Assembly (NCBI GenBank): GCA_037042915.1
Contig: CM073199.1
Coordinates: 3,472,001 to 3,536,000, forward strand
Source of the DNA: Auricularia sp. M13
Taxonomy: Eukaryota > Basidiomycota > Agaricomycetes > Auriculariales > Auriculariaceae
Direction: 5' to 3'
DNA length: 64,000 nt
Part shown: positions 346-64,000 of the stretch, in pieces
Numbering within the stretch: the first letter of the stretch is position 1
How the letters are laid out: every line of letters begins with the position of its first letter
Notes under the pieces: model-generated
Seen by the model: only the letters and a program-made list of their open reading frames with translations
The model's database searches: none
Told to the model about the DNA's origin: nothing
Position numbers and translations under genes: made by a program

Positions 346-1796
346 CTAGTCGCTGGTGCAGCTGCCGTCATCAGGATAAGGGTGCGACTGCAGGCAGTCC
401 TCATCCATGCCAGCGATCGTGTAGAAGTTGTCGAGGTTGACGTTGAGCGCCTTGCGGAGCTCGCCACGAGGGTTCGGGTACAGCGCGACGGTGTTGTTGA
501 CGAACTTGCGGTACAGCGCGCAACTCGTGTTGCCCTCGTCCTCGCCGAAGAAGTCGGGGTCGGCGACGAAGTTGTTGACCGTGCCGTTGTTGAAGCCGGG
601 AGTGATGGGGTGCATGTCCAGGAGGACGTCGCTCACGCTCCCGACGTCGTGCAGCCCGAAGGCGCCCTCGCGGCGGTAGAAGTCCTTAGGCATCTTGTGG
701 TCCTCGAAGAAGCCGCGCATGACCTCTAGGTCGAGCCCCTTAGCCGCACGCACGTCATCGCCCTTAACGCGCCCGTCGATGAAGTAGGCGATGGGGAAGA
801 CGGACTCGGCGTAGGCGGTGTTGAAGCGCGGGTTGCTGAAGTAGAAGTTCGGGTTGTGCGCGATGGACTCCTGGATACGGCGCCAGCGGACTTCGCCCGC
901 GACGGTCAGGTTGTACCTCCCAGCACCGAACTTCTTGCTGTCTTTCTCGATCTGAGAGAGAGAGGAAGAATTAGCACGCAAACATGACAGAAATCGCGAT
1001 TGACTCACCAGCTTGAACAGCGTGTTGTTGAAGCTGTGGTTATCGCCCAAGAAGTCATCGCTGCGCGTGAGACTCGCGTCGCCTGAGTCAAGCTGTCAGA
1101 AGATGAGTGAAGACGAAATAAGTGCGGGACGAGCCTTCGAAAGTGCCGTGAACGTTGAGACCGCCAGCGAGCGCTGGCTTCGGGGGCGCAAGCCCGGTCA
1201 ACGGCGAGAGACCACCTGTCCGAACGGTGTTAGAGGATCTCCAGGATATCATTGCGATCGACTCACCGATGCTCATCAGGTTGGTGAGATGGTTGCCGTT
1301 GACGAGGAACGCAGCGTAGGTGACGAAAGTCGCGATATCGTGGCCCATGTTGAAGCCCTCCTGAACGGCAGTGATGATCTGCGCCGGTGTGGCGACTCCA
1401 GAGCGAGGGAGGTACTGCGACACAGACCGTCAGCTGTGGAAATGCAGCGGCGCTGAGAAACCTACGCCGTGCGAAGCGAGCGCGTTTAGGCCGGGGCAGG
1501 GACCTGGGCGAGCACTGTTCAGCGGTTCTATCACAGCAGGTGATGCGACACATACCGCGCTGGTCTCCCTTCTCGAGCTTCTTGTAAGGATGAGCCTTGT
1601 CGTTCACCAGTTTCGAGCGAGTATCCGTGATGGGCGGCGGGACGGGCTCAGCGCCGACGATGGGGACCTGGACGGAGCGCACGAAGTGCTCGATCTCCTC
1701 GTGCGACATTCCAGCCAGCGACTCCCATGGGTGGATAGCGGCCGCAAGCACTGAGGTGACGGCGAGGAGGGCAGAGAGTCCGCGGGTGAGCTGCAT
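346..1796 (-). CDS. Unspecific peroxygenase (heme-thiolate peroxidase, Peroxidase_2 family), secreted
   Basis: Exons on the minus strand: 1796-1556, 1503-1466, 1414-1267, 1215-1135, 1082-1009, 951-346. They join in frame to 396 codons (395 residues plus TAG). The start gives a typical signal peptide (MQLTRGLSALLAVTSVLAAA). Exon 2 encodes the PCP heme-thiolate motif (RGPCPGLNALASHG), whose cysteine is the proximal heme ligand in this family. Exons 4-5 encode EGDASLTRSDD, the EGD acid-base motif with the distal arginine seen in long UPOs such as the Agrocybe enzyme. Several N-glycosylation sequons (NNT, NLT, NGT) fit secretion. Members use H2O2 to oxygenate aromatics and alkanes. Intron 4 appears to use a GC donor (1134-1133) with a normal AG acceptor; the other introns are GT-AG. 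The gene looks intact. A close paralogue lies at 42482-43899 on the other strand. Confidence 0.93.
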
Positions 1797-4425: not shown

Positions 4426-5684
4426 CGCCCGTACGGCGCGGCCAGTCGCCGTACCAATGTACGGGCTTTAAGGCTGAAACTAAATTAAATATAAGTACAC
4501 CTCGCCGTACTTTATTTAGATTTAGTATGTAATTAGTATTAATTAATTATAACTAGTTATATCTGAATCAAATCAAGTGCCATTGATGACAAGTTATACT
4601 CGGTGTATACAACTAATGACTACATCATACATGCTTCTATAACTATATCTACTGATTATACAAGGTTCCTGAGGTGTTGGGATGCCTGCAATGTGAGGGT
4701 GAAGCAAGAAACCTTTTGGGTGAGAGTATTACCAAATTGGGAAAGACGATCCAAGATGAAGCATAACTGATGACTGGGATACCATACCTGCTCCTCGGTA
4801 TATGATCGGTTAATAGGACTCCATATGGCTTGATACAGTATGCATTACAACCTCAGGATACTTCAGAAATTGACTCTGGCAACATATAAGGTACTTGGCA
4901 GTCTTGCATATCGTCAAGGACCTCCACTCCCATGGCAGGAAGGTCTCTATAAATGTGGATCAGGTCTAGAACACCTCTCTCTAGATGCATCTCAGTTTAT
5001 CTGGGCCCTCATAAAGTTCACATGTAGATACAATTAATTATATCTAATTACTCAAAAATACACGAGTCCGTACTTTAATTATATTTATATAGGCTGTTAA
5101 TTAATTATACTTAGTAATTAATTCAATTAGTTGCAGCCTTAACGGGCTTGCCGCACCTGCACGCCGGTGCTGGGGTTGGCGGCGAGCGCGTGCGCGGCAA
5201 CCGGCCAACCGCGGCGCCCTGAGCCCTCCAGCTCGGGCGTCCACACGCGGATTCGACGCGCGAAACAGCCCGTACCGATGTACGGGCTGTTTGTGCCTTC
5301 GCACCGACGCTGGGGCCGGCGGCGAGCGTGCCCAAGACGGAGCCGGCCAACCGCAGCGCCCTGAGCCCTCCAGCTCGGGCGCCCGCATGCCCCTACAGCG
5401 CGGCCAGTCGCCCGTACTAATGTACGGGCTGGCCGCGCCTTCGCGCCGGTGCTGGGGTTGACGGCGAGCGCGCGTGCGCGGCAACTGGCCAACCGCGGCG
5501 CCCTGAGCCCGCCAGCTCGGACGTCCACACCCGGATTCGACACGCGAAACAGCCCGTACCGATGTACAGGCTGTTTGTGCCTTCGCACCGACGCTGGGGC
5601 CGGCGGCGAGCGTGCGTGCAACAGAGCCGGCCCACCGTGGCGTCCTGAGCCCTCGAGCTCGGGTGCGCGCATGCCCGTCCGGCG
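4426..5684. repeat. GC-rich satellite, 142-bp units in alternating A/B forms (left part)
   Basis: Each unit has the palindromic core CCCGTAC-N4-GTACGGG. Cores lie near 4449 (A), 5269 (B), 5411 (A) and 5553 (B). The complete intervals are exactly 142 bp. After removing the 673-bp insertion and one 8-bp duplication, the first interval is 140 bp. A units share GCGCGGCCAGTCGCCCGTAC and B units share GCGAAACAGCCCGTACCGAT, so the true period is a 284-bp dimer. The array resumes at 22355 beyond the Mutator-like element. Long GC-rich open frames here (for example around 5101-5831) follow the repeat and are not genes. Confidence 0.88.
4469..5141. mobile_element. AT-rich 673-bp element in the satellite, 8-bp duplication (hAT-like)
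   Basis: The terminal inverted repeat begins TAAGGCTGAAACTAA on the left and TAAGGCTGCAACTAA read inward from the right. The target duplication ACGGGCTT is identical at 4461-4468 and 5142-5149. Removing the element and one duplication brings satellite cores back to 140-bp spacing, which supports the boundaries independently. Subterminal palindromes around AGTAC/GTACT occur near both ends. No ORF of note. The 8-bp duplication suggests hAT, although the terminus TAAGG is not the classic CAGNG. Confidence 0.85.
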
Positions 5685-5779
5685 ACCAAATGCTATCCGG
5701 CCAGCGTTGTGGTGCATCCGAAGCTCCGACTCCGACCGGTCCGTCGGGCCATGATGACGCAATGCTTGGCACCGGACTT

Positions 5780-5818
5780 GTGCAAATGCCAGAGGTCGCC
5801 CGTCTCTGGCATTTGCAC
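5780..5818. repeat. Hairpin, perfect 15-bp stem and 9-nt loop
   Basis: GTGCAAATGCCAGAG (5780-5794) pairs exactly with CTCTGGCATTTGCAC (5804-5818). It lies just inside the left MULE terminus, about 310 nt beyond the stop codon of the transposase gene. It could serve in transposase binding or 3'-end formation; function is unknown. Confidence 0.7.
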
Positions 5819-6863
5819 GAAGACTGCCCATGCTGATGTTGGCCTTGATTTCATAAAGTATTCTTAAAACCGCTATTGTGCTATATATAAATCACTGTTT
5901 TGTTTTATTTCTTGCAATGAGATGGGCGAATACTGGCATGCTGATGGCAAATGCAAGTAAGTAGTATATGAAATTCTACACTGTTCAGCATGTCAGGAGA
6001 ACAGGTGATATAGAAGCTGAGATACTGTGTAGCACATCTACATTGTTCACGAGTCTTAGTGTAGTCGGCCCCGATAACAAAGTGTGCAATAACAGGATGT
6101 CAATAAGTGACCGAAGTTGAAAGATCCTATTTATTCGTTACTCTCGGTCAGTAGTCCTGTCTGATAGCCCATAGTGTTCCGAGAGTATTGCCTCCCTCGC
6201 TTGTTGCCCCAAGTGCCACGGCGTACGCGACCGTGTTCTTTGAGTTTGATGTCGGCGGCAAAGTCCTCCAGCGCGTCAAGTGCGGGCATCTCGTTGGTGG
6301 TGCGCAGCCACAGTTTGACATCGTTCGGTGGTGCCTTGTCCAGCTGCGCGTCGATTGCATCGGCGAGGAAGCGCAGTGTTTTGGCGCGCTTGCGCATTTT
6401 TTCCCGCACCTGCTGCTCCTGCAATTGATGGATGAGTAAAAATGAAGATGCAATAGCGGAAAATGAACCTGCTCAGCTGTCTCATCGGCATCGGCACCGT
6501 CGATCTCAGAGGCGTCATACATACGTGTGTTGTGACGCGGCGTCGTCCCAGATGGAGCTCGACTCGTCCCAGCCTGAGGCTGGTGTATCGCTGCGCTTGC
6601 GTTTGAGATGTAGCTCCTCGAAGGTGGGAAGGACGGCTCTTTCCCGGACCATCATGTCCGTAGACCAAACCAGGTCCAGAGCACACCAAACGTCCTTCCT
6701 TGCGTGCTAGAGACCATCTGCACGCAAATACCTTTCATTTTCTATCGATTACGAAGAGTCTGAGCATTTCGAGGACCACGCAGCCCTTTGAGAAGAATGG
6801 GCAACTAGTACGACGCGATCCAGAAGATCGGGTAATCAAAAGAGCACGCAAACGAGCATTCAT

Positions 6864-10105: not shown

Positions 10106-12460
10106 ATGACACGACGTAGCCGCTGGGCTGCTTCGATGAGCAGAACGGAGCGGACGTCAGGGCGACACAGGGAATCGCCCTGTGCCAGCTATTCTACCTC
10201 GATGACAAGAGCCCCGCCGCGCGCGCGAGCCGCCAATTTCCGCCCCATTTCGCCTCCTCCAAGCCAGCCACTGTCCACGCCCCAGAGGCGACCTATATGG
10301 GCTCGCCGTCCTTCCAAAATACGCTCCCTTATCCTGAGTCGGCCTCTCTTCGCCGTCTACACGTACAGAGCCGCACTTGCCCACGAAAGTGTCACGCAGA
10401 ACCTCCCACCCACGCGCAATCACGACTCGCTCACGGCCTGCTTCCCCAAGATGTTTCTCACGACGATGAGTGCTGACGGCGAAGGTGTGTCCCATACGGT
10501 AGAGATAACCCTGGCCGACACTGATCACACGGGCACAGCGGCCGAGGACATCATCCTTATACCTGAGACGCAGCCAGAGGGGCCAGCCGCAGACCAGCTG
10601 GAGCCCACGACAGTAGCCCCTCTTCTCCCATCGTCGCCGCCCGTCGGCCAAGCTGTGCTCCCTGAACAGTCGCCCACCCGCCCAGCGACGACTCGAACGG
10701 CGGAGGAAGCGGCCACGCCTAGTGATCGCGAAAAGGCACGCCAGCTCGCCGAAGAGCGACGCGCGAGACGCCGTCTCTCGGTCGAAGGACTCGACGACGC
10801 CAACTGGCCACCGCTGCAGCGTCAAGAAGCGGGCGCGGACGTAGCCCGGGGCGCCAGCAAAGCCCCAGCGCAAAGGCCGATCGCGGGACGCCCAATCGCG
10901 CTGCTGCCGCGCCAGGCAGCAGTGCAACGTCCTCAAACCCAGCCAGCGGAAGCGGACCGCGATCACCGCGCCCTCGAGTCAGCGCCGAAGAGCCCAGTCA
11001 CGAGATCCATCGACTGGTCGCGCGTTCCGGAGTCAGCTCCGCGCAGATTCGGACCACAGATCCCCGCACACCTCCGCGAGCCAGAGCAGGGCGAACAACG
11101 CCGCGGAAAACCACTCGCAGCGACGCCAGTCTTGGTACACGACATGTTCGCAGAGGCCGACCCAGCGTGGCCTGCAAAAGACCCATCACGCCCAGCCCCC
11201 CCCAACTCGCCATCTGAACAGCGCCTGCAACGTCGTCAAGACAAGTCGACGGCTCGGACGGGGCAACAGCCAGGGCAACGAGGATGGCCCACGTACCCAG
11301 ACATGGACGTCGACGACCCAATCGCCGAGGACGAGAACGACGTCCCCCTCGCAGACCTCCCAGCAGCACAGCCGCAGCGCACGTTCTCGTCCGACGACGA
11401 CATCGTGGAAGACACCGAGGAGGAAGAGGTGGAAGACACCGACAATGAAGATGCGGACGACGACTACGAGCTGCACCCCGCTTTCAATGAGCGCAAAGTC
11501 CATGTCGCATCGAACGGCAACAACCGCCGCATCGACGGCATGGCCGCCAACGCTCACCTCGCCAACCTATGCCCGACACAGAAGTCGGCGTGGACAGACC
11601 TCAAGAAGCCGAAGGTGGTGTTCGTCTGCGACAGCATTGGAGGCCTGGACCCATCGTCGATGCACCCCTTGGCGGCTATTCAGAAGCTCGCCAAGGCCGT
11701 CAAGGGTGCCCTACCGACGAGCAAGCCGCAGGTAACGCGCGCAGAGACAGACCCGCGCAGCAACAAGCCCGTCCGCAGGAACACGTTCCTCCTGACCGGC
11801 ATAACACGCCAGCAGGAGGACGCGCTCTGTTACTGCCGGCACTACGTCCTGGACAACGCATGTATTACGACCTTCCGTTTCACCGTGCTTGCCTCGAGCC
11901 ACCTCGGCACCGTCACCAATACTCAACTACGCGGCGAACACTTACGCGAGAGCATCAAGCCGTCATGGGGGACGAACCCGAGCTTCCGCGCCCCGCTGGA
12001 AAAGTTTGCGTTGCGCAACAAGGTTGGAGCAGAGCTGCTGATACGCGCTGTCCTCGACTCCGTCTCAATCCGCTCGCTCACCACGACGGCAAGCACGGAG
12101 TCGATAAAGGAATACAACGTCCACGCGGACGTGGACTTCCTGCCGCAAGACCTGCTGACGGAACTTCGGGACGCGGTGCGCAACATACTCATCAGACACC
12201 CCTTTAAAGGACACGGACGCATGCGCAAGCAGCCCTGGGACTGCTCCGTCTGCGGGAGCGCCGGACACCCCACGGGCAAGTGCCCAACCGCCCGCATCGA
12301 CGGTTGGACCAACGCGCACGGCGCAACGTCGTCGTCGAACGGAAACCACGCAGCAGGCAGCAGCGCCAACGGTGCGCGAGGACGCGGCGGTCGCGGAGGC
12401 GGCGGACGCGGCGGCGCTGGCCGTGGAAATGGGAACGGCTACCGTGGCCGTGGTTTCTGA
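10106..12460 (+). CDS. LINE ORF1: gag-like RNA-binding protein with CCHC knuckle and RGG tail
   Basis: Open frame of 784 codons. A likelier start may be the Met at 10451 (MFLTTMSADGEG), because the first 115 residues are low-complexity. Order of parts: Pro/Ala/Glu-rich disordered region; acidic block near residues 425-455 (DDDIVEDTEEEEVEDTDNED); a conserved-looking domain around residues 480-700 (ICDSIGG-like VFVCDSIGGLDP, then FLLTGITRQQEDALC); a CCHC zinc knuckle CSVCGSAGHPTGKC near residue 715; and an RGG-rich tail (GRGGRGGGGRGG). In LINEs such proteins coat the RNA and are needed for retrotransposition. No premature stop is seen. Confidence 0.82.
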   Translation: MTRRSRWAASMSRTERTSGRHRESPCASYSTSMTRAPPRARAANFRPISPPPSQPLSTPQRRPIWARRPSKIRSLILSRPLFAVYTYRAALAHESVTQNLPPTRNHDSLTACFPKMFLTTMSADGEGVSHTVEITLADTDHTGTAAEDIILIPETQPEGPAADQLEPTTVAPLLPSSPPVGQAVLPEQSPTRPATTRTAEEAATPSDREKARQLAEERRARRRLSVEGLDDANWPPLQRQEAGADVARGASKAPAQRPIAGRPIALLPRQAAVQRPQTQPAEADRDHRALESAPKSPVTRSIDWSRVPESAPRRFGPQIPAHLREPEQGEQRRGKPLAATPVLVHDMFAEADPAWPAKDPSRPAPPNSPSEQRLQRRQDKSTARTGQQPGQRGWPTYPDMDVDDPIAEDENDVPLADLPAAQPQRTFSSDDDIVEDTEEEEVEDTDNEDADDDYELHPAFNERKVHVASNGNNRRIDGMAANAHLANLCPTQKSAWTDLKKPKVVFVCDSIGGLDPSSMHPLAAIQKLAKAVKGALPTSKPQVTRAETDPRSNKPVRRNTFLLTGITRQQEDALCYCRHYVLDNACITTFRFTVLASSHLGTVTNTQLRGEHLRESIKPSWGTNPSFRAPLEKFALRNKVGAELLIRAVLDSVSIRSLTTTASTESIKEYNVHADVDFLPQDLLTELRDAVRNILIRHPFKGHGRMRKQPWDCSVCGSAGHPTGKCPTARIDGWTNAHGATSSSNGNHAAGSSANGARGRGGRGGGGRGGAGRGNGNGYRGRGF

Positions 12461-13918: not shown

Positions 13919-16900
13919 GTGCGAGTAGTACTGACTGGCATAGCTCACCGTGCTGGCCGGCATGCCAGCTGTGCGAGATGGGTGCGCTGGCCCCTCTCTG
14001 CAAGATTTACAGCGCGAAGCCCAATTATCACCAATAACTCATCTCAGGTGACAATCGATCGGTCTGGTTACACGTTCCAGAGCACCGAACCAGAGGTTTC
14101 TGATGCTGCCCTTCCCTCTGTGGATGATGGTGCTCAGGAAGCAGGAGGCAGCGCTTTGGGGGGAGAGTTCGTGATGAACAACATTCTAACGCCAGAAGGC
14201 TGGCGTCAGGATTCGCATCAGGCTGGTGAATCCAGTACTAATGCAAGCGACCTCACTATGCCGCGATCAGTGGCAGGGTCGAGCTCAGCATATATACAGA
14301 CACCATCTGATGCTGGGAATAACTACTCAAACCATGCAGTATTACCAATAATGCAGGATAACCAGACACGCTCAAAAAAGAGCACCAAAGCCTATATCAA
14401 ACTGGCCTCTGAAAATATGAAGGGCCGGGGCACGCAGAGGATAGCAGGCAGCATCAAATGGAAAAAGATTGCAGAAGACATTCGCAGTCACAAGATCGGA
14501 ATCATGGCCATTCAGGAGACCCACCTCGATGCACAGCACTTAGATGAAATTCATCGCTACTATGAACATCTTCATGTAGAAAATACTGCGCTGCCAGCAA
14601 ACCCCACGGGTGCGGGGGGCGTTGCGCTGGTCTTCAACAAGCTGCTCACAAATTATCGCACTATTGACACTCATGTCCTGGTTCCAGGCAGAGCAATAGT
14701 GTGCAAAATCGAATGGCACAGGGACTCTAGCCTGGTCGTCCTCGCCATATACGCGCCCACCACTGCCAAGGCAAATAAAGAGTTCTGGGAGACTCTAAAA
14801 AAGACTCTCAGGCATGCAAAGGGCAAGATTCCCAAACCAGATGTCATGCTGGGAGATTTCAACCAAGTGGAGGACCCCATCGATCGCTTCCCTGCAAAAT
14901 TGTCAAAGATTGATTCACCTCAGTCTTTCGAAGACCTCAAAAGATATCTGAAAGTCACAGATGGGTGGAGAGACGCCTTCCCTGACAGCATCGAATGGAC
15001 ATGGAGGAACATGCCCCTGTCATCCATGTCTCGCATTGATAGGATCTACTTGACCAACAAAATGCGCGCGGTCAGCAGACAGTGGGAAATTAATGTGTCG
15101 AGCATAAATACATACGATCATAGCAGAATCTCAGTTGAGTTAGTGTGCAGAGATGCGCCAGACATTGGCCCTGGACGCTGGACCATGTCTGAGAACCTAA
15201 CAAGAGATAAGATTTTCATGTCAGAGGTGTACAAACTTGGCAAAAGCGCCCAGTCAGAGATGGACACCGTCGCCTTCTTAGGCAGGACAGCATTCAACAA
15301 CCCCCAGCGTACCTGGGAACGTCTGAAAGAGCAGATAAGAAAGGCAGCCAAGGCCAGAAGCAAAGATCTTAATTGCGCCAGGCGCACAAAATTGACAAAA
15401 GCGCAAGAACGGAGAAACTCTGCCAAAACCTGCCTGAGAGCAGCATCCTCGCCTGATGAAATCACAGAGGCAAAAGCGCAGCTCAGAAAAGCTGAAATGG
15501 AGATCTACAATCTACAGGACAGCTCGCACACCTCCATATTCCAGAACAGATCAATACGTGTCTGGCTGGAAGCAGAGACCATGTCCAAGTCCTGGTTCAG
15601 TTGGGTGAAAAGTAAAAAACCGCGTGATACCATGATGCAACTCAAGCGCCCAGGGTGTGAACCAGCACAGTATGTTCTGGAATCACGCGATATGGCAGAT
15701 TTGGCCGGAGAATACCACAACTCGATCCAGTCCAAAGATCTGGACGTAGATGAAGCTGCGCGCTCAATGGCCATAGAGCACGCTTTAGATCATCTGGAGC
15801 GTCGCGCAGATGCAAGTGCGCGTGCCAAACTAGCAGCTGTAATATCAAGAGAGGATGTAACAGAATCTCTGGCGTCCTCGAAAAGTGGGAAAGCTGCTGG
15901 CTTAGATGGCCTCATATATGAACTCTGGAAAGCCATCCACAAGCAGTTCTGTAAATCCAGGGGCAAAGAAGATCAAACCTTCGACGTCGTGGGTATGATG
16001 ACAATGGTCTTTGAAGATATTGAACTCCATGGCTTAGACGCAGACTCCAAATTCGCAGAAGGCTGGCTGTGCCCCTTGTACAAGAAGGGCGACAGAAGTG
16101 AGATCGCTAATTACAGACCGATCACTCTTCTCAACACAGACTACAAAATTTACACCAAGGCCTTGGCGCTCAGGCTGGCTAGCATTGCGCCCCAGCTCAT
16201 TCATGAGTCTCAGGCTGGCTTTGTCCAGGGTCGCAGTATCACAGACCATTCCAAAATCACGAGTCTCATCCTTGATTACGCTGAAGCCAAGGAAGAAAAT
16301 GGTGCCATTGTGGCACTGGACCAGGAAAAAGCTTATGATCGCATAAGACATGACTATCTGCACAGGATTCTTAAAGCCTTTGGCTTCCCAGAGCACTTTG
16401 TAAATGCGGTCAGGACGCTGTATGAAAATGCTTTCACTGTGGTCATGATCAATGGCTTCGCAAGCAAAAAGTTTAGAGTTACCAGAGGCGTCAGGCAGGG
16501 AGATCCGCTCTCCTGCTTGCTTTTTAACTTGGCAATAGAGCCGCTCTCAGCTATGCTCAGACGCTCTGAGCTGCAAGGCTACAAGATTGATGGCATTGAG
16601 GGCAAACTAATCGCCACATTATATGCAGATGATACAACAGTGTACATGAGTGAGAATGACTCTTACCAGCGCCTCTTCCAGATCCTGGACCAGTGGTGCC
16701 TTGCAGCAGGTGCTCGCTTCAATGTGCAGAAAACTGAAATCGTTCCAATGGGTACAAAAGAGTACAGGACACAAGTCCTGGTTTCGAGATGCCTCAAAGA
16801 TGGGGACCCTGCCATCCCAGACTCAGTGCGCATTGCCAGAGATGGCGAACCCATTCGCATACTTGGTACCTGGCCAGGCAATGGAGTGCAGAATGTGAAT

Positions 16901-19270
16901 GCCTGGTCCTCCATCCAGGACAAAATTGCTGAAACTCTACAAAGATGGGAAAGTAAGCGCCCCTCGCTGAATGGCAGAAGCATTATATCACAGGTTGTGG
17001 TAGGTGGATTTACCCAGTACCTTACTGCTGCCCAAGGCATGCCAACCAAGCTGGAAAAACGCCTGGATAAAATGACGCTTGACTTCCTCTGGGCAGGCTC
17101 TCGCCGCCACCCAATTAATATGGATACTCTGCGCCTGGGTAGAGACCATGGAGGTCTGGGTCTGTTCCACACTGAGAGCAGAAATGATGCGCAATACCTG
17201 AAATGGGTGGGCGCATATATCAAAAATGATGAGAAGCGTCCAATGTGGACCTACCTGGCAGACTTCATCTTCAGAATTGCTATCATCAACAAGGACAAGA
17301 AATGGGTGCCAACCGACGCACGCATCAACCCCTTCCAACAGGTGTGGCGACCCAACAAGCAGAAACTACCTTTCATCTTGCAGCAAATGGTGAGGGTTGC
17401 AGCTAAATATAGTGTCGCCCTCGATGCGCCTCAGATCCCAGAGCACATAAAGGAAGATATGCCCATATGGGCACACCCAGCCATGGGACAACCAGATGTT
17501 CTGCGAGAATATAGGAGAGAAGTGCGATGCCTAAAGACCTCTCACGCGGTCTGTACGGTTGAAGATCTCGAAGAGATAGCTGAACCTGATGACTTTGACC
17601 ATGAGGAGTCTAGTACCTGCATATGCGACAATTGCATGACTGACAGAACAGAGGGCTGCAAGAACCCCTTCAAATGCCAGGAGTTTGCTCGTGACATACT
17701 GAGCGAGCTTGCGCCCAAGTGGAACACTGCGACCACACAGGCTGAAGTAGACCCCAGCATGTGGGAAACTTTCGTAGAGGGTCGCATGGAGGCAATCCAG
17801 ACTGGTGAACCAATAATTTTCGACCCAACCCTACACCAAGGGGATGACCTGGCCAGCTACTACAGAGCTTTCGTGGACACAATGGCCCTCAGTGGGAGAG
17901 GGGTGACAGATACCATATGTGATGCGGCACCTGTACGACCACATGGAGACAAGGATGCAGAGGCTGTGGAAGTGGTCGTCTGCGGTGCGATCATAAATGG
18001 AGATTCAGCAATCGCCAAGGGCGGCTTTGCAGCATATTTTCCAGAACACGATTTCGACGACAAAGTGGGCTTCTGCCCAGGGGATACACACTCCTATGTG
18101 CGCAGTGTAGCCATAGCAATAAAGATGGCAGCAACAACGGCACCAAGACATCGCCCTCTGCACATGATCAGCACCAGTGCAGCAGTGGTAAGAATGCTCA
18201 CCCTTGATTTATCCAAGCATGAGTCCACTGGATGGATGGACTTGCCAAATGAGGCAGACGCCATGCGAGCAGCGGCTGCAGCTCTGCGTGCCAGAGGTGC
18301 ACCGACCTCGTTCACATGCATAGCCAAGAACAGAGTCAAGCACTGGCCACAGGTTGGAGAGGCAAGAAAAATGGCCCTTGTGGCTGCAGAAGTGGGCCCG
18401 CCTTTTGACTTGGACCTCGAGGAGCTGGTGCCCTTTGATAAGCCTGGGCTCGCAATTGCAAATATCACTCAGAGAGAAGCACATAGAGCCATAAAATGGC
18501 TTGCCCAGAAAAAAGTCAAACAGCGAAAAGCGACTCTGGAAAATCTCAAACTAATAAAATGGCGTGTACATCATGCGACAGACTTCATGCCACTGGAGTC
18601 CCAGTTCTGGCAAAGTCTGCAATCCAAAAACCTCTCGCGCAGTGTGCGCAACTTCCTCTGGAAAATGGCCCATGGTGCGCACAAAGTTGGCGACTATTTC
18701 AGCAAAATGCCAGAACCATGGGCGTCATATGCCACATGTCCATCATGCCAGGAAACTGAGACCATGGAACACATCCTCCTAAAATGCGAGAGCTCAGGTT
18801 TTGAAACAGTATGGGCCTTGGCCCAGGACTTCCTGAAGAGCCGCAAGATCAACATAGACATAGACATCGGGGTTATCATGGGTTGTGCAACCATGCGAAT
18901 AGGACACATGGGGTCTGCAAGAAATCGTGCGCTGGAGCGCATCTTCTGCATTATTGTGTCAGAATCCGCCTTCCTGATCTGGAAGATAAGGTGTGAAACC
19001 CGTATTGAGCACGCTGAGGATCCAGACTGGGTCATGCCAGAAGAGGAGGTGACCAAGAGATGGAAGAAAATGTGCGAATCACGTCGCGTGCAAGACAAAC
19101 TTCTCACAAATAAACACCGTTACAAGACGAAGGCGCTGTGCAATGTATTATATGAAGATACTTGGATAGATCGCAGTGCCAACCCTGATTACTGGAAAGC
19201 ACAATTTTGGAATAAACAGACCGGTTTTTTAGTGGGTACGGGGAATGACGCCAGGAATGGTGTCGGTTGA
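13919..19270 (+). CDS. LINE ORF2: APE endonuclease, reverse transcriptase, RNase H, zinc fingers
   Basis: Uninterrupted frame of 1783 codons ending TGA at 19268-19270. Landmarks by residue: endonuclease QETHLD near 199, LGDFNQVE near 311, SRIDRIYL near 371 and YDHSRIS near 399; reverse transcriptase NYRPITLLN near 731, ALDQEKAYDRI near 799, RQGDPLSCLLFNLA near 859 and the catalytic YADDTTVYM near 902; a CxxC/Cys cluster CICDNC near 1233; an RNase H-like region near 1345-1480 (GGFAAYFPEHD, then NEADAMRAAAAAL); and a terminal zf-RVT motif CPSCQETETMEHILLKC near 1607. APE endonuclease plus RNase H fits the Tad/I group of fungal LINEs. The N-terminal 130 residues are Ser/Thr-rich and the true start may be a later Met. 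Confidence 0.93.
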   Translation: MRVVLTGIAHRAGRHASCARWVRWPLSARFTARSPIITNNSSQVTIDRSGYTFQSTEPEVSDAALPSVDDGAQEAGGSALGGEFVMNNILTPEGWRQDSHQAGESSTNASDLTMPRSVAGSSSAYIQTPSDAGNNYSNHAVLPIMQDNQTRSKKSTKAYIKLASENMKGRGTQRIAGSIKWKKIAEDIRSHKIGIMAIQETHLDAQHLDEIHRYYEHLHVENTALPANPTGAGGVALVFNKLLTNYRTIDTHVLVPGRAIVCKIEWHRDSSLVVLAIYAPTTAKANKEFWETLKKTLRHAKGKIPKPDVMLGDFNQVEDPIDRFPAKLSKIDSPQSFEDLKRYLKVTDGWRDAFPDSIEWTWRNMPLSSMSRIDRIYLTNKMRAVSRQWEINVSSINTYDHSRISVELVCRDAPDIGPGRWTMSENLTRDKIFMSEVYKLGKSAQSEMDTVAFLGRTAFNNPQRTWERLKEQIRKAAKARSKDLNCARRTKLTKAQERRNSAKTCLRAASSPDEITEAKAQLRKAEMEIYNLQDSSHTSIFQNRSIRVWLEAETMSKSWFSWVKSKKPRDTMMQLKRPGCEPAQYVLESRDMADLAGEYHNSIQSKDLDVDEAARSMAIEHALDHLERRADASARAKLAAVISREDVTESLASSKSGKAAGLDGLIYELWKAIHKQFCKSRGKEDQTFDVVGMMTMVFEDIELHGLDADSKFAEGWLCPLYKKGDRSEIANYRPITLLNTDYKIYTKALALRLASIAPQLIHESQAGFVQGRSITDHSKITSLILDYAEAKEENGAIVALDQEKAYDRIRHDYLHRILKAFGFPEHFVNAVRTLYENAFTVVMINGFASKKFRVTRGVRQGDPLSCLLFNLAIEPLSAMLRRSELQGYKIDGIEGKLIATLYADDTTVYMSENDSYQRLFQILDQWCLAAGARFNVQKTEIVPMGTKEYRTQVLVSRCLKDGDPAIPDSVRIARDGEPIRILGTWPGNGVQNVNAWSSIQDKIAETLQRWESKRPSLNGRSIISQVVVGGFTQYLTAAQGMPTKLEKRLDKMTLDFLWAGSRRHPINMDTLRLGRDHGGLGLFHTESRNDAQYLKWVGAYIKNDEKRPMWTYLADFIFRIAIINKDKKWVPTDARINPFQQVWRPNKQKLPFILQQMVRVAAKYSVALDAPQIPEHIKEDMPIWAHPAMGQPDVLREYRREVRCLKTSHAVCTVEDLEEIAEPDDFDHEESSTCICDNCMTDRTEGCKNPFKCQEFARDILSELAPKWNTATTQAEVDPSMWETFVEGRMEAIQTGEPIIFDPTLHQGDDLASYYRAFVDTMALSGRGVTDTICDAAPVRPHGDKDAEAVEVVVCGAIINGDSAIAKGGFAAYFPEHDFDDKVGFCPGDTHSYVRSVAIAIKMAATTAPRHRPLHMISTSAAVVRMLTLDLSKHESTGWMDLPNEADAMRAAAAALRARGAPTSFTCIAKNRVKHWPQVGEARKMALVAAEVGPPFDLDLEELVPFDKPGLAIANITQREAHRAIKWLAQKKVKQRKATLENLKLIKWRVHHATDFMPLESQFWQSLQSKNLSRSVRNFLWKMAHGAHKVGDYFSKMPEPWASYATCPSCQETETMEHILLKCESSGFETVWALAQDFLKSRKINIDIDIGVIMGCATMRIGHMGSARNRALERIFCIIVSESAFLIWKIRCETRIEHAEDPDWVMPEEEVTKRWKKMCESRRVQDKLLTNKHRYKTKALCNVLYEDTWIDRSANPDYWKAQFWNKQTGFLVGTGNDARNGVG

Positions 19271-42481: not shown

Positions 42482-43899
42482 ATGCAGCTCACTCGCGGAC
42501 TGTCCACCCTCCTCGCCATCACTTATGCTCTCGCGGCGGCCGTTCAGCCCTGGCAGTCGCTCGCCGGCTTGTCTCATGAGGAGGTCGAGATGTTTGCGCG
42601 CACTGTCAAGGTGCCCATCGTCGGCGCCGAGCCAGTCCCCCCACCAATCGCGGACACGAGCTAGAAGCTTATCAACGACGCCGCACATCCGTACAAGCCG
42701 CTCCAGAAAGGAGACCAGCGCGGTATGTAATCCCCATCCATGTTCATTGACATCGCTGAGTAGCCTTGACCAGGTCCTTGCCCTGGCCTGAACGCGCTCG
42801 CCTCTCACGGAGTGAGTCTCACACAGTTCCGCAGATCTTGAACGACATGCTAACAACACATCATTACAGTACCTCCCGCGTTCGGGTGTGGCCACTCCTG
42901 CGCAGATTATCACTGCCGTCCAGGAGGGCTTTAACATGGGACACGATATCGCGACGTTCGTCACATACGCCGCGTTCCTCGTCAACGGAAACCATCTCAC
43001 CAATCTCATGAGCATTGGTGCGCAATGCCAACATCTTGAGCTCTCGCTGATGGTCGAACAGGTGGTCTCTCGCCCCTCACCGGAATGGCGCCGCCGAAGC
43101 CGGCCCTCGCGGGCGGTTTGAACGTACACGGCACTTTCGAAGGTACGATGGCGAGCTTTATTGGAGTTGCATGAGCTTATGCCTTGACTTACCAGGCGAC
43201 GCGAGCCTCACGCGCAGCGACGACGCCCTGGGCGACAACCACAGCTTCAACGCGACGCTCTTCGATCTGGTAAGTGGAACGCGCTGACCCATATGCATCT
43301 GCTGATGAATATCTCAGCTTGTCAAAGACAGCAAGACGTACGGCGGTGGCAGGTACAACCTCACTGCCGCGGGCGAAGTCCGCTGGCGCCGCATCCAAGA
43401 GTCCATCGCGCACAACCCCAGCTTCTTCTTCAGCAACCCTCGCTTCAGCACCGCCTACGCCGAGTCCATCTTCCCCATTGCCTACTTCATTGATGGCCGC
43501 GTCAAGGGCGACGACGTGCGCGAGGCTACGGGGCTCGACCTGGAGGTCATGCGCGGCTTCTTCGAGGACCACCGCATGCCGAACGATTTCTACCGCCGCG
43601 AGGGTGCGTACGGTCTCCATGAAGTCGGCAGCATCAGCAAGGTGCTCCTTGCGATGCACCCGGTCAACCCCGGCTTCAACAACGGCACGGTCAACAACTA
43701 CGTCGACGACCCGGACTTCTTCGGCGAGGACGAGGGCAACACGAGCTGCGCGCTCTACCGCAGGTTCGTCAACAACACCGTCGCGCTGTACCCCAACCCC
43801 CAGGGACAACTCCGCGATGCGATCAATGTCAACCTCGACAACTTCTACACCATTGCTTCGATGGACGAGGACTGCCTTCAGTCTCACCCCTATGCCTGA
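42482..43899 (+). pseudogene. Unspecific peroxygenase paralogue with one premature stop codon
   Basis: Exons 42482-42722, 42774-42811, 42870-43017, 43062-43142, 43196-43269 and 43318-43899 match the first peroxygenase exon for exon; exons 1-5 have identical lengths (241, 38, 148, 81, 74). They join to 388 codons. The signal peptide (MQLTRGLSTLLAITYALAAA), the PCP motif (RGPCPGLNALASHG) and the EGD-R motif (EGDASLTRSDD) are all kept. Codon 61 is TAG (42662-42664) where the paralogue has Ser, so translation would end before the heme ligand. No other lesion is seen, and intron 4 keeps a normal GT donor. It is a very young pseudogene, or a stop-codon polymorphism, readthrough case or base-call error. 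Confidence 0.85.
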
Positions 43900-47514: not shown

Positions 47515-47522
47515 TATAAAAT
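47515..47522 (+). promoter_or_regulatory. TATA box of the repeat-peptide precursor gene
   Basis: TATAAAAT 57 nt before the ATG at 47579, with a C/T-rich leader (CTCGCTGCCACCTCTCCCGC) between them. Confidence 0.7.
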
Positions 47523-47578
47523 CGGACTTGTCCGCCGAGTTTGCATCGTGATTCCCTCGCTGCCACCTCTCCCGCACA

Positions 47579-47827
47579 ATGCGCCTGACCGCTCTTTTTG
47601 CCCTCGCCCTGTGCGCCATTGGCGTCTCCGCCGCACCCGCTGCTGCCCCGGAGAAAGGTGCGCACCTTATTTGCCACAGGCCCCATCATCGCTCATGACC
47701 TATTTTCGCAGTCGAGCCTTTGGGCACGCCTGGATGGAAGCGCGACGACGGCCCCGTAGTCGACGGCACGCCTGGCTGGAAACGCGGCGGCACGCCTGGC
47801 TGGAGGCGCGGAACCCCCGGCTGGTAG
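47579..47827 (+). CDS. Kex2-processed repeat peptide precursor: four GTPGW repeats (64 aa)
   Basis: Exon 1 47579-47657 encodes a signal peptide (MRLTALFALALCAIGVSA) plus a short Ala/Pro pro-region (APAAAPEK). A 54-nt intron (GTGCGC donor, TTCGCAG acceptor) is followed by exon 2 47712-47827. After a short VEPL, exon 2 encodes GTPGW-KR, DDGPVVD-GTPGW-KR, G-GTPGW-RR and a final GTPGW before TAG. The dibasic KR/KR/RR pairs are classic Kex2 sites, and Kex1 trimming would leave peptides ending in GTPGW; the last copy ends exactly at the stop codon. The layout matches yeast alpha-factor precursors and the KEP (Kex2-processed repeat protein) class, including dikaritin RiPP precursors. It lacks the CaaX motif of basidiomycete mating pheromones. 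The product may be a signal peptide or a modified peptide; no modifying enzyme is seen nearby. Confidence 0.88.
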
Positions 47828-50044: not shown

Positions 50045-50385
50045 AACCGACTCACTCTTGCAGGCTTACGGGTGCGTTGTATGTCCCGTCTGCTGAGATG
50101 CCATTTCTCACGCCAAATTAGTTGCACATCGCCCGAAGACAGCCGTGGACTACGACCGCCTCATTGTTCTCGACAAAGGTCTGAATCAGTGTCTCTCAGC
50201 ACCTGTATTGGGGCAGACTGAGTCTTCCACAGGAAACATTGTCGAGTTTGACACACCACTCAATCTCATCCGCAAGCAGGGAGGTTACTTCCGCAATATG
50301 GCGCTCAAGAGTGGGACGTTCTCCCGACTCGAGGCAATCGCAGTCGCTGCAGCGAAGAGTAAAGACACCAGGACGTAGATCGAGG
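50045..50385 (+). pseudogene. Inverted duplicate of the 3' end of the ABCC transporter gene
   Basis: The sequence repeats, in opposite orientation, the last part of the ABCC gene at about 55284-55600, at roughly 90-95% identity. It holds [11 protein letters not shown], an intron-like gap, then [18 protein letters not shown] and [10 protein letters not shown]. The last intron is retained, so this is a DNA-level copy and not a retrocopy. It lacks both ATP-binding sites and is not functional. It lies about 5 kb from its source, just beyond the 3' end of the DUF6534 gene. Confidence 0.85.
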
Positions 50386-50681
50386 CAATTCAGTCAGAGT
50401 AGAGCAACATCTTGCTTACTATTTGGGCTCTACCTGTCGAGGTATATAGTCGCCCAGACGCAGAGGCAAGACGACAATTCCGCTGTGCATACGAACCCTG
50501 AGGTTATTATTGTGCTATAGCGACCGTGAATGGCGGGCGATACCAAGAAACAAGAAGTGCGAAGTGGTGTACTGTACACATGCGATCGATGTCGATATCG
50601 TCCCGGCCGGACAAGCAAGAAGGAGGGAAAGACAGCTACAAATGCACGAAAGCGACGAAAGGAGTGGGAGTGGGGCGCGCG

Positions 50682-53606: not shown

Positions 53607-53755
53607 GCGCAAATTTAGTGACGTCGCTGACATCCTCCGTCCGTTTTCCGATCTCCTCGGTGGCTCTGAGGATGAGCCGCTGAAATTTAGTGCGGCGCAA
53701 ATTTAGTGACGTCGCTGACATCCTCCGTCCGTTTTCCGATCTCCTCGGTGGCTCT
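53607..53755. repeat. 88-bp-period tandem duplication in the F-box gene
   Basis: A 61-bp segment is repeated exactly at 53607-53667 and 53695-53755, 88 bp apart. Because 88 is not a multiple of three, the duplication shifts the frame of the overlapping F-box gene. Confidence 0.92.
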
Positions 53756-54965: not shown

Positions 54966-55270
54966 AGCGCGGTTCAAGCTCCGCTTTTTCTCAACCAACG
55001 CTGTCCGTCAAACATGTCATGCATATGCCAGATTGAGACATCTGCGGAGCCGAAGACAGCCTCTTCAATGCAGCACCTGTGCAAGAACACGCCGGAGAAT
55101 ATACAATAACGCTTCATCTGCATGGGGATACGAAGTTGGGGAAGCCAAGGGGAAGCGGCGATGCACATTTCATGAAGCTAGCAGGCCAGTGCCAGGAGCG
55201 AATTGCTCGTCAAGCTTACAACCCAGCGTTCTCAGAATAAGCAATGTATTGCTCTACTCGAACTGCAGTA
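54966..55270 (-). pseudogene. Relic of a second F-box gene 3' end
   Basis: The stretch 55010-55210 resembles 53135-53330, which lies beyond the displaced 3' part of the F-box gene (for example CGCCGGAGRATWTACAA, then GCTCGTC-AAG). Both copies keep the same order and orientation. The body of this second copy is absent, so a former tandem pair of F-box genes was probably reduced to one body and two tails. Confidence 0.5.
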
Positions 55271-55283
55271 CCTATATCTACGT

Positions 55284-58200
55284 CTAGGTGTCTTTACTCT
55301 TCGCTGCAGCGACTGCGATTGCCTCTAGTTCGGAGAACGTCCCACTCTTCAGCGCCATATTGCGGAAGTAACCTCCTTGCTTGCGGATGAGATTGAGTGG
55401 CGTGTCAAACTCGACAATGTTTCCTGTGGAAGACTCAGTCTGGCCCCAATACAGGTGCTAAGAGACACTGACCTTTGTCGAGAACAATGAGGCGATCGTA
55501 GTCCACGACTGTCTTCAGGCGATGCGCAACTGATTGGAGTGAGGAATGGCATCGCAGCAGACGGGACACACAACGCACCCGTAAGCAAGAGAGAGTCTTT
55601 GAACTCTTCACGAATAGTTGCCTGGATTTTGGTGTCCGTCTCGAAATCTGCTCAAGTCGTCAACACGAGTGCTGTGTGGCCAATTAAGTACGAACCAATA
55701 GAAGACGTCGCCTCATCCATGACGATTATGGCGCTGCGGCGCAGCAAGGCACGGGCTAACGCAACGAGTTGCCGCTGGCCCTGCGAGAAGTTTGTCCCGC
55801 CAGCAGAGACTTTGGTATTGAGCGAGACGCTCTGCCGAGCGTCATCCACCCGCGTTGTTACAGAAGACGCCGAAGCCGCGATTTCTGGTGCATCATCTCC
55901 ATTGGATATGGGAGACGGCGCCCGTGACGTTCTGGCGGAAGCGAACGCGCTGGCCGGGCTGGACACCAACTGAACGCGCGTAAGCACATCCGCACATTCT
56001 TCGTCGGTAAATTCGTGGAACGGATCCAGGTTGTCGCGAATCGTGCCGCTGAAAAGCGCAGCATCTTGCGGGATGAATGTCTATGATGCAGTCAGCGAGA
56101 TGCTTGAGGGGCCGGGAGTGATGTGAGCGCACGATTTTGGACCTGAGGTCTTGCAGGCCGATCGTTGTGATGTCGATGCCGTCGACAACGATGCGGCCTT
56201 CCGCGGGATCCACAAATCGTAGGAGTGACATGGCGATCGTGGACTTGCCGCTGCCGGTACTGAGAGACATGAGCTTGAATATACAGAGATTAAGCGGAGC
56301 AGCGAGCGTACCGTCCGAGGAGACCAACCCGTTCTCGGGCGTGAAGATTGAACGAAATCTTGTGCAGGACCGGGGGCAGGTCGGGAGCGTATTTGATGGT
56401 CAAGTCCTCGACAGACAGAAGAGGACTATCTGGTCCCCCGGACGATGATGGCCAGTATGCAGGTGGACGCCGAGACTCGATAACGGCGGGCGGCTCCTGC
56501 GGCAGGTCGAGATATTCTATGACTCGCTCAACAGAGCTGCATCGTAGGTTAGAGGAAATTGAATGAACGTATGGAAGGCTCACTTTAGATCCAGTTCGAG
56601 CTGTGTGATGAACCTGCATGTCCAGTAAATGCTCATCGTGAGATTCATCGCAGCCGTGATGGTCACGCCCGCCCAGCCTGCAATCCCCCCAGATGACGTT
56701 ATTGTGGACAGGCCGATGAGCGCGGTGGCCAACACGGTAGAGGCGCCGATTATATCAAAGCGGAAAAGCAGGTAGCGGTTGAGCATCCAGAAGGTCCACC
56801 ACATCTTGTTCATCAAGTCGAGCATGTTAAATAGGCTGTCCAGGAATCGCTGCTCGGCACAGAACGCTCTGACGGTGACGATACCCTCGAGAAGCTCGCT
56901 GAATGACTGGAAGACCGGAGAACGGGTCACAGCTTCCATACGACGAAGATCGCGTCCTGGACGACCCGAAGGATCATTATCTTGTGTCGGCACCGGTAAG
57001 AGATCCATTCTCACCAGTATTGAGATAACCAACTGCAAGGCGATAGTAAAGGTATGCCACCGCGATCGCGGGCACAAGGAAGCCGGGTAAAATGTAAGAA
57101 ATCGTCTGAGAATGATATGAGACGGTATTTTGGGTTGCAGACAGAAACATACTATGATGCCCGCAAGAAACGATGCGAATGTGCCTATAAGCTTTGTGAG
57201 ATTGACGTCAATAACAGGGCATCGTGTCTCGGCTTACCTATGAAGGTTCCCAGCGACGAGGCCAATGATGAGTCAACCACCTCGATGTCCCTGCTGAACC
57301 TGTTCAGGATTCTTCCTATGGAAGAATCAGCAATGAATAAAGCCGCGCAGAAGAACAACATGCCAGTCGGGGTGACATCGAACCACCTGAACGGCGCGTG
57401 AACGACAGTAACCAGTAAATTTTTGAAGAGTATCCGACTGGCGCGGTATGCGCCGATGTACTCGATAATCTGGTTGGTGAGGCCCATGAATGCTGTACCG
57501 AGGGTGATCGAGGCGTAGATCCCGACATAGAACATCGGGTGCTCGTCAGTGGAAGGCAGCTTGGGCAAGGTCGTAGCGCCTATTGCATGCGCTTGCAGCT
57601 CGTGAACAGGTCTCAGCCCGGATGGAACGTGTTGTACGACGAAGGCCGATGCATGAGCAAGGCCGGAAGGGGGTTGTGCTGTAGAAAGCGAAGCCTGAGA
57701 CATTTATTAACGACAAGCCGTCCGCGGCCAGACGGCAACCATACCTCGCCCCAGATCTTAATCCAGAGAAGCTCGCTAACTTTGAAGAGCTCGTACAGCG
57801 CGATGAACGCCAGAACGGCTATCCAGGTCCAGTACGACGACGCGCGCAGATAGGTGTTGTAGATGCGCCATTTGACGCGTCCTTCGGCGCGCGCCTCGTC
57901 CTCGACGAGCTGCTTGGGCTTGGCGGCCGCATCTGCCGGCTTCTGCCCGTCCAATTCTCCCTTTTCTGCAGCTGGAGCTTCGACCTCGGTTTCGGCGTCA
58001 TGCTTGATGGCCTCGAGAGCGCCGCGTGCGCGCAGCTCGCGCGGGGTACCCGCTGTGTCAATCCGGCCATCCAGAATCCTGACGATAAACTGCGCGGCGG
58101 GAAGCATGAGCTCTACGTGATGCGTGACGAGAATCTGAGCGTATTTCAGCCAAATAACTCCCGACGCGCGTGACAGCAGAAATGCATACCACAGTTCTAT

Positions 58201-63268: not shown

Positions 63269-64000
63269 CAGAACGAGGAGGAGAGGTCCCGGATTGGCTG
63301 AGATAGCTGACGGCCAGCCCAAATCTGCCGCTGACAACGCATGAGCATCACTGCTCGCCCGCACCGTGACGCAGGCCTGCGCAACTTCTCGTACAGCATC
63401 TTTGCATCTATGAGAAGTTACATCACGCGTTGCTCTGGCGAAAATAGCCTTAAAGTACTTGCAATGGCCGGGGAGCTTTAGCTATGTAACTTGATCTCTG
63501 AGCTGTAACTCATTCCAGTGCTCAGTAGCCTTAGAACCGTAGGATTTACAACTATTGAGCTCTATTGGTGCTGGAAGAGGCACCCAAAAACCTCCAAGTC
63601 CCATGGTATTGCTCAAATTGCTGCAGTAAGTGTTCATAGGCAAATGTGTGACAGTCGCCATGACTGGTGCCTTCCAAGCCTTCTAAACCGACCATACAGG
63701 TTTAATCACGTTTAAAATCATTGGGAATAGAGATAAATGGCCTCGGCCTGCCAGACACGAGTGTAGAGTCCGTGCCAAGTTTTAGCTGGATCCTGGCTCA
63801 GTCCAAGCGAAGCCTATGAGGCCATTTTCGCCAGAGCAACGCGTGATGTAACTTCTCATAGATGCAAAGATGCTGTACGAGAAGTTGCGCAGGCCTGCGT
63901 CACGGTGCGGGCGAGCAGTGATGCTCATGCGTTGTCAGCGGCAGATTTGGGCTGGCCGTCAGCTATCTCAGCCAATCCGGGACCTCTCCTCCTCGTTCTG
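63269..64000. repeat. Long inverted repeat, arms at least 182 bp, 368-nt interior, cut by window end
   Basis: 63269-63450 is the near-exact reverse complement of 63819-64000 (one difference seen near the inner end: AAAATAGCCT against AAAATGGCCT). The right arm continues past the window, so full length and target duplication cannot be seen. The interior (63451-63818) has no gene. It could be a foldback transposon, a MITE with long ends, or a hairpin-RNA source. Confidence 0.9.

What the first reader, a model, noticed from the sequence alone, without database searches (positions are those of the whole stretch)
47515..47827. Secreted precursor with four GTPGW peptides between Kex2 sites
A 64-residue two-exon gene with a TATA box, signal peptide and four GTPGW copies split by KR, KR and RR. 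The final copy ends at the stop codon, so every product would share the same free Trp C-terminus after Kex2/Kex1 processing. Alpha-factor-like repeat precursors are known in ascomycetes, and KEP/dikaritin precursors in many fungi, but I know of no described GTPGW peptide. Pro-Gly-Trp termini without cysteine suggest a short linear or side-chain-crosslinked peptide, possibly a signal. It is easily missed because the coding part is only 195 nt in GC-rich DNA.
Basis: partly seen in the sequence, partly recalled or inferred. Interest (0 to 1): 0.88.

Follow-up and report, generated by a model that had tools for sequence, protein, structure and literature searches.

The report
Mushroom precursor for tryptophan-ended secreted peptides
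A tiny gene, probably from a mushroom-forming fungus, appears to encode a secreted protein that is cut into four short peptides all ending in Gly-Thr-Pro-Gly-Trp; this is a new sequence in an already described class of fungal peptide precursors whose purpose is still mostly unknown.

Summary
The + strand of 47579-47827 reads as a two-exon gene with a 54-nt intron. It encodes 64 residues: a signal-peptide-like start, then four GTPGW copies separated by KR, KR and RR, with a stop right after the last Trp. An identical 4-mer three times before dibasic or stop codons appeared in 0 of 60 random windows. The four base differences among the core copies are all synonymous (chance about 0.002).

Best reading: a KEX2-processed repeat protein (KEP) giving linear peptides with a shared GTPGW C-terminus. 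No DUF3328/UstY match was found in 34.5-64 kb, so the crosslinked alternative has no support. No Ste13 signature directly follows the Kex2 sites.

The kind is known: linear, Trp-ended KEP peptides were detected in mushrooms (PMC9769878), and others were found by survey (PMC6339444). I found GTPGW in no fungal paper of the library searched; supplementary tables could not be read. No fungal genome collection was available, so conservation, expression and function are untested. Verdict: new member of a known kind.

The parts
47515..47520 (+). TATAAA box, 64 nt before the ATG
   Evidence: Read; TATAAA occurs 11 times on + and 8 times on - in 64 kb.
47579..47657 (+). Exon 1: signal-peptide-like leader MRLTALFALALCAIGVSA and APAAAPEK
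   Evidence: hydrophobic core up to 2.76 Kyte-Doolittle over 11 residues. SignalP was not available.
47579..47632 (+). Predicted signal peptide, cut proposed after GVSA
   Evidence: Small residues at -3 and -1 (V, A); inference from sequence, supported by the crude rule.
47658..47711 (+). Predicted 54-nt intron, GTGCGC to TTTTCGCAG, phase 1
   Evidence: not confirmed by RNA.
47712..47827 (+). Exon 2: VEPL, four GTPGW copies with KR, KR, RR between them, stop TAG
47723..47737 (+). GTPGW copy 1
47738..47743 (+). Kex2 site KR
   Evidence: Sequence; cleavage inferred.
47744..47764 (+). Spacer DDGPVVD of the second peptide
47765..47779 (+). GTPGW copy 2
47780..47785 (+). Kex2 site KR
   Evidence: Sequence; cleavage inferred.
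47789..47803 (+). GTPGW copy 3 (peptide GGTPGW starts at 47786)
47804..47809 (+). Kex2 site RR
   Evidence: Sequence; cleavage inferred.
47810..47824 (+). GTPGW copy 4, ending at the stop codon 47825-47827

Best explanation
This is a small KEX2-processed repeat protein (KEP) gene of a fungus, probably an agaricomycete. The signal peptide takes the precursor into the secretory pathway. Kex2 cuts after KR, KR and RR, and Kex1 removes the basic residues. This leaves four unmodified linear peptides per precursor: APAAAPEKVEPLGTPGW, DDGPVVDGTPGW, GGTPGW and GTPGW. They differ at the N-terminus and share GTPGW-COOH, so the C-terminal pentapeptide is probably the part that is recognised, with the N-terminal extensions neutral or trimmed. 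Shown here: the anatomy and the synonymous divergence of the core copies. Inferred from studied KEPs: splicing, secretion, cleavage and linearity. Conjecture: that the peptide acts outside the cell as a signal or in interaction with other organisms.
For: Four identical cores before KR, KR, RR and stop in one open spliced frame; 0 of 60 random windows had even a 4-mer three times; all four core differences synonymous; signal-peptide-like start met by 6 of 2148 ATGs and TATAAA by 28 of 2149; no DUF3328 match nearby; linear Trp-ended KEP peptides, among them a long and a short form with the same C-terminus, were detected in mushrooms (PMC9769878).
Against: No transcript, peptide or homologue was seen. 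The gene model needs an unproven intron whose donor, GTGCGC, ends in C where T would be commoner (recalled). Three of the four synonymous changes are also silent in an antisense frame. The first Kex2 fragment is long and holds only one copy; the core of five residues is below the 8-aa limit of one survey.
Confidence: 0.78

Rival explanations
1. It is a dikaritin-type RiPP precursor: UstY/DUF3328 oxidases crosslink the Trp or other side chains before or after Kex2 release.
For: The precursor layout (signal peptide, repeats, Kex2 sites) is the one dikaritins share (PMC9769878 introduction). By the abstract of PMC7329392, genes for 22% of KEPs have a DUF3328 gene near by. A peroxygenase gene lies about 4 kb away, but this is a common mushroom family (recalled).
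Against: No DUF3328 match in six-frame scans of 34.5-64 kb or in 70 single ORFs, and no paired HxxHC motif among 12 single matches in the window (motif recalled; one row printed blank; a motif cut by an intron would be missed). No Tyr in the core.
Confidence: 0.09
2. It is a non-coding minisatellite or chance ORF with no peptide product.
For: No homologue or transcript was seen; two of the copies lie in a 24-nt tandem repeat; the exon join is a prediction.
Against: The copies are spaced irregularly (42, 24, 21 nt), keep their frame and amino acids through base changes, and sit behind a signal-peptide-like start with a stop right after the last copy.
Confidence: 0.08
3. It is an alpha-type mating pheromone precursor like those of ascomycetes.
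For: Same layout and a Trp C-terminus as in many Sordariomycete pheromones; a Trichosporon KEP peptide ends in GTPCW (PMC6339444).
Against: No XA/XP dipeptide directly after any of the three Kex2 sites (DD, GG, GT); no Pfam match at E up to 1; [quoted passage not shown]
Confidence: 0.03
4. The repeats belong to a gene on the opposite strand.
For: The - strand frames also repeat: [HQ]PGVP four times, and SSQAC-RR twice. Three of the four core differences are also silent for PGVP.
Against: The QPGVP frame has no ATG between its stops. The SSQAC frame keeps two of four copies before a dibasic pair and has a single ATG without a hydrophobic leader. Only the + frame keeps all four units.
Confidence: 0.02

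Closest known systems
Linear Trp-ended KEP peptides of Agaricomycetes (C. cinerea KEPs 447393 and 490115; L. edodes KEP 2599; Pleurotus KEPs 1091723 and 1439342; PMC9769878)
   Same: Signal peptide, Kex2-type sites, short cores rich in Gly/Pro/Ala with a C-terminal Trp, and, for 447393, a long acidic form (DDDPEGPPAPSW) and a short form (GPPAPSW) with the same end, as predicted here for DDGPVVDGTPGW and GTPGW.
   Different: Core sequence GTPGW; no Ste13 motif after the Kex2 sites, unlike 490115 and the Pleurotus KEPs; the 447393 peptides come from a non-repetitive C-terminus. No peptide has been detected here.
KEP of Trichosporon oleaginosus with the peptide QSWGGCGGRGTPCW (PMC6339444)
   Same: Basidiomycete KEP; C-terminal GTPCW differs from GTPGW in one residue.
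   Different: Longer peptide with two Cys, an inner Trp and Ste13 signatures; the short likeness may be chance.
Ascomycete alpha-factor precursors
   Same: Secreted repeat precursor cut by Kex2 and Kex1.
   Different: No Ste13 signature, no Cys pair, no Pfam match; basidiomycetes mate with a-type pheromones.
Dikaritins (ustiloxin, phomopsin, asperipin-2a)
   Same: Precursor layout.
   Different: No UstY/DUF3328 match found here and no Tyr in the core.
Qsp1 of Cryptococcus
   Same: Short unmodified secreted basidiomycete peptide ending in Trp that acts as a signal (PMC7537855, PMC5959073; passages).
   Different: Matured by the cell-wall protease Pqp1, not shown to be a Kex2 repeat protein in what I read; no sequence relation beyond the end was tested.

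Membership tests
KEX2-processed repeat proteins (KEP, Le Marquer definition) | Signal peptide for secretion | tested here: inconclusive
   Signal-peptide-like by hydrophobicity and residues at -3/-1; SignalP was not available.
KEX2-processed repeat proteins (KEP, Le Marquer definition) | At least four fragments and three similar motifs separated by KR or RR, covering at least 15% of the protein | tested here: met
   Four GTPGW motifs, KR, KR, RR; 20 of 64 residues, 31%, by hand. Their FIMO step itself was not run.
KEP, Umemura definition | At least three tandem repeats of 8 aa or more between Kex2 sites | tested here: not met
   Core of 5 aa; fragments of 17, 12, 6 and 5 aa against the rule in PMC7329392. 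Their script was not run.
KEP | Release of the peptides by Kex2 and Kex1 | not testable with these tools
   Needs mass spectrometry or expression.
Dikaritins | UstY/DUF3328 gene near the precursor gene | tested here: not met
   No match in 34.5-64 kb or 70 of the 217 listed ORFs; no paired HxxHC in the window. Sensitivity limited by introns; genome elsewhere not held.
Dikaritins | Crosslinked product | not testable with these tools
   Needs mass spectrometry.
Alpha-type pheromone | Ste13 signature XA/XP after Kex2 sites | tested here: not met
   DD, GG and GT follow the three sites. AP-AA-AP occurs only after the signal peptide cut.
Alpha-type pheromone | Pfam mating factor domain | tested here: not met
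   0 families at E up to 1; short peptides can be missed by such models.
Qsp1-type signal | Short secreted peptide with C-terminal Trp | tested here: met
   Predicted from sequence only.
Qsp1-type signal | Maturation by a Pqp1-type protease and import by an Opt1-type transporter | not testable with these tools
   Whole genome not held.

The most novel reading that the evidence does not exclude
GTPGW-COOH is a secreted intraspecies signal, one of a broad basidiomycete class of unmodified Trp-ended peptides (PSW, AADW, SDW, GTPGW and perhaps Qsp1) read by their C-terminus through a common importer or receptor. This would be a signalling system parallel to, and distinct from, the lipopeptide mating pheromones.
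Probability: 0.17. Interest if true: 0.68.

Novelty: new member of a known kind. Interest (0 to 1): 0.36.

Why it matters
It adds a compact, easily synthesised peptide with predicted masses to the mushroom KEPs, whose functions are mostly unknown. It also shows that cores under 8 aa fall outside the threshold of one main survey. The Trp C-terminus recurs across unlike KEP cores in mushrooms, which makes a shared recognition mechanism testable.

Tried and rejected
No whole genome is held for the window (error). Homologue searches in viral contigs (27 pattern matches, 0 confirmed) and prokaryote contigs (590 pattern matches, 0 confirmed) were empty, but these collections are not fungal, so this is not evidence of absence. 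The PDB search with the precursor gave 5 hits up to E 10, best E 0.18, read as chance. Rfam found nothing at 45.5-50 kb, tRNA search nothing in the window. Paper searches for GTPGW, TPGWKR, PGWKR and PGWRR gave 2 and 4 papers, judged unrelated from the listing alone. A search for newer work on such precursors in Agaricomycetes brought 6 papers, of which only the two KEP papers already read were pursued. A crosslinked product, an alpha-pheromone, an antisense gene and a minisatellite were ranked below the linear KEP. No structure prediction was made because a short peptide precursor would not fold informatively.

The Pfam scan of 15-kb frames had limited sensitivity: it missed a GST-like ORF that a PDB search found (a GST_C_3 match at E 0.0083 is also). 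That is why the single-ORF scan was added; it took 70 of the 217 ORFs, all between 36.4 and 61.5 kb, chosen by eye. One query for the peroxygenase region (43188-43490 +) found nothing; the ORF in the right frame did.

Full report
Observation. The sequence was read directly. ATG 47579 opens MRLTALFALALCAIGVSAAPAAAPEK. Removal of 47658-47711 (54 nt, GT...AG) joins it to VEPLGTPGWKRDDGPVVDGTPGWKRGGTPGWRRGTPGW and TAG at 47825-47827. Without splicing the first frame stops after 39 codons, so the gene model depends on the intron. Of four GT-AG solutions between 35 and 150 nt that keep at least three copies, the 54-nt one alone keeps both the complete leader and all four copies.

Is it more than chance? 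GTPGW is found in no other place of the window in six frames. A 4-mer peptide repeated three times, each before a dibasic pair or a stop and within 100 residues, was seen in 0 of 60 first-order Markov windows. In the real window it was seen here and in three frames of one Lys homopolymer tract. Looser rules are not rare: the 3-mer rule gave 2 hits and the two-copy 4-mer rule 22 hits in the 60 random windows, and the real window has further two-copy hits elsewhere. Among the four 15-nt core units there are four base differences (one in copy 1, three in copy 4), all at third positions and synonymous. Random placement gives this in 0.22-0.25% of draws for transition weights 1, 2 and 4. This is not independent of the opposite strand: three of the four changes are also silent in the antisense [HQ]PGVP frame, but that frame has no ATG between its stops. 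The copies start 42, 24 and 21 nt apart, so they are not a regular array. TATAAA within 40-110 nt upstream is found for 28 of 2149 ATGs and a signal-peptide-like start for 6 of 2148; by hand, this ATG meets both rules.

Surroundings. Six-frame Pfam scans of 34.5-64 kb, a scan of 70 of the 217 listed ORFs and PDB sequence searches show these neighbours: a heme-thiolate peroxygenase gene at about 42.9-43.9 kb on +, a GST-like ORF at 44.2-45.1 kb on -, an F-box match at about 54.8-54.9 kb on -, and an ABC transporter of the C subfamily with matches from about 55.7 to 58.7 kb on -. A second peroxygenase lies at 0.35-1.1 kb on - and a LINE-type retrotransposon ORF at 13.9-19.3 kb on +. No DUF3328 match was found. 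Twelve single HxxHC motifs exist in the window, none with a second one in the stretch shown, one row being blank. The content suits an agaricomycete; this placement is inference, as no genome is held and no taxon was tested.

Mechanism. After the signal peptide is removed, Kex2 would cut behind KR, KR and RR, and Kex1 would remove the basic residues. The four products have 17, 12, 6 and 5 residues and share GTPGW-COOH; the last copy needs no Kex1 because it ends at the stop codon. Every copy keeps the last five residues while the N-terminal extension varies, which suggests that the C-terminus is the recognised part (inference). No XA/XP dipeptide directly follows a Kex2 site, so Ste13 trimming is not expected there; AP-AA-AP follows the signal peptide cut only. 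Secretion and cleavage were not shown.

Comparison. Vogt et al. 2022 (PMC9769878; abstract, introduction, two of three parts of the results and the discussion read) report linear, minimally modified KEP peptides by mass spectrometry in four Agaricomycetes. Trp-ended ones are GPPAPSW and DDDPEGPPAPSW in C. [quoted passage not shown] edodes, and SGVAADW and MSGVAADW in Pleurotus; QYKAPSW was seen after expression in P. pastoris. Other detected peptides do not end in Trp. They state that BLAST reveals many other basidiomycete KEPs with core peptides ending in Trp. They saw no phenotype in six kep knockouts on axenic growth and no antibacterial activity of the synthetic peptides. Le Marquer et al. 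2019 (PMC6339444; abstract, results, one discussion section and the pipeline read) list an XSDW motif in Basidiomycota and a Trichosporon peptide ending GTPCW. Umemura 2020 (PMC7329392; abstract, diversity section and detection method read) required repeats of at least 8 aa, so by my reading a 5-aa core would be missed there. The supplementary tables of these papers could not be read, so GTPGW may be listed in one of them. Qsp1 of Cryptococcus (passages of PMC7537855 and PMC5959073; other papers seen as listings) shows that a short unmodified Trp-ended peptide can be a signal in a basidiomycete, but it is matured by another protease, Pqp1, and imported by Opt1.

Verdict. The finding is a sound gene prediction of a KEP whose core sequence I found in no fungal paper of the searched library (unrelated papers only, judged by their listing). 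It is a new member of a known kind. The crosslinked reading lacks its enzyme near by; a signalling role is plausible and untested. Conservation in other fungi, the most informative test, could not be done because no fungal genome collection was on hand.

Noticed in passing
50054-50418 and 55238-55596: Inverted duplication in three pieces (87-92% complementary) whose - copy lies at the end of the ABC transporter gene; the + copy may be a gene fragment.
   Followed up: no
63269-63455 and 63814-64000: Inverted repeat of 187 nt, 98% complementary, 358 nt apart, reaching the window edge; possibly the ends of a small transposable element.
   Followed up: no
13919-19270: Open frame of 1783 aa with endonuclease and reverse transcriptase domains: a LINE-type retrotransposon, with a long open frame at 10106-12460 before it that has no Pfam match.
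   Followed up: partly
349-1095 (-) and 42870-43896 (+): Two genes for long-type unspecific (aromatic) peroxygenases, the second about 4 kb from the peptide gene.
   Followed up: partly
53607-53667 and 53695-53755: Perfect 61-nt direct repeat, 88 nt apart, at the end of the F-box ORF.
   Followed up: no
5104-5891: ORFs with imperfect internal repeats (RAGGLRAPRLA and similar) in two - strand frames, suggesting a degenerate tandem repeat.
   Followed up: no
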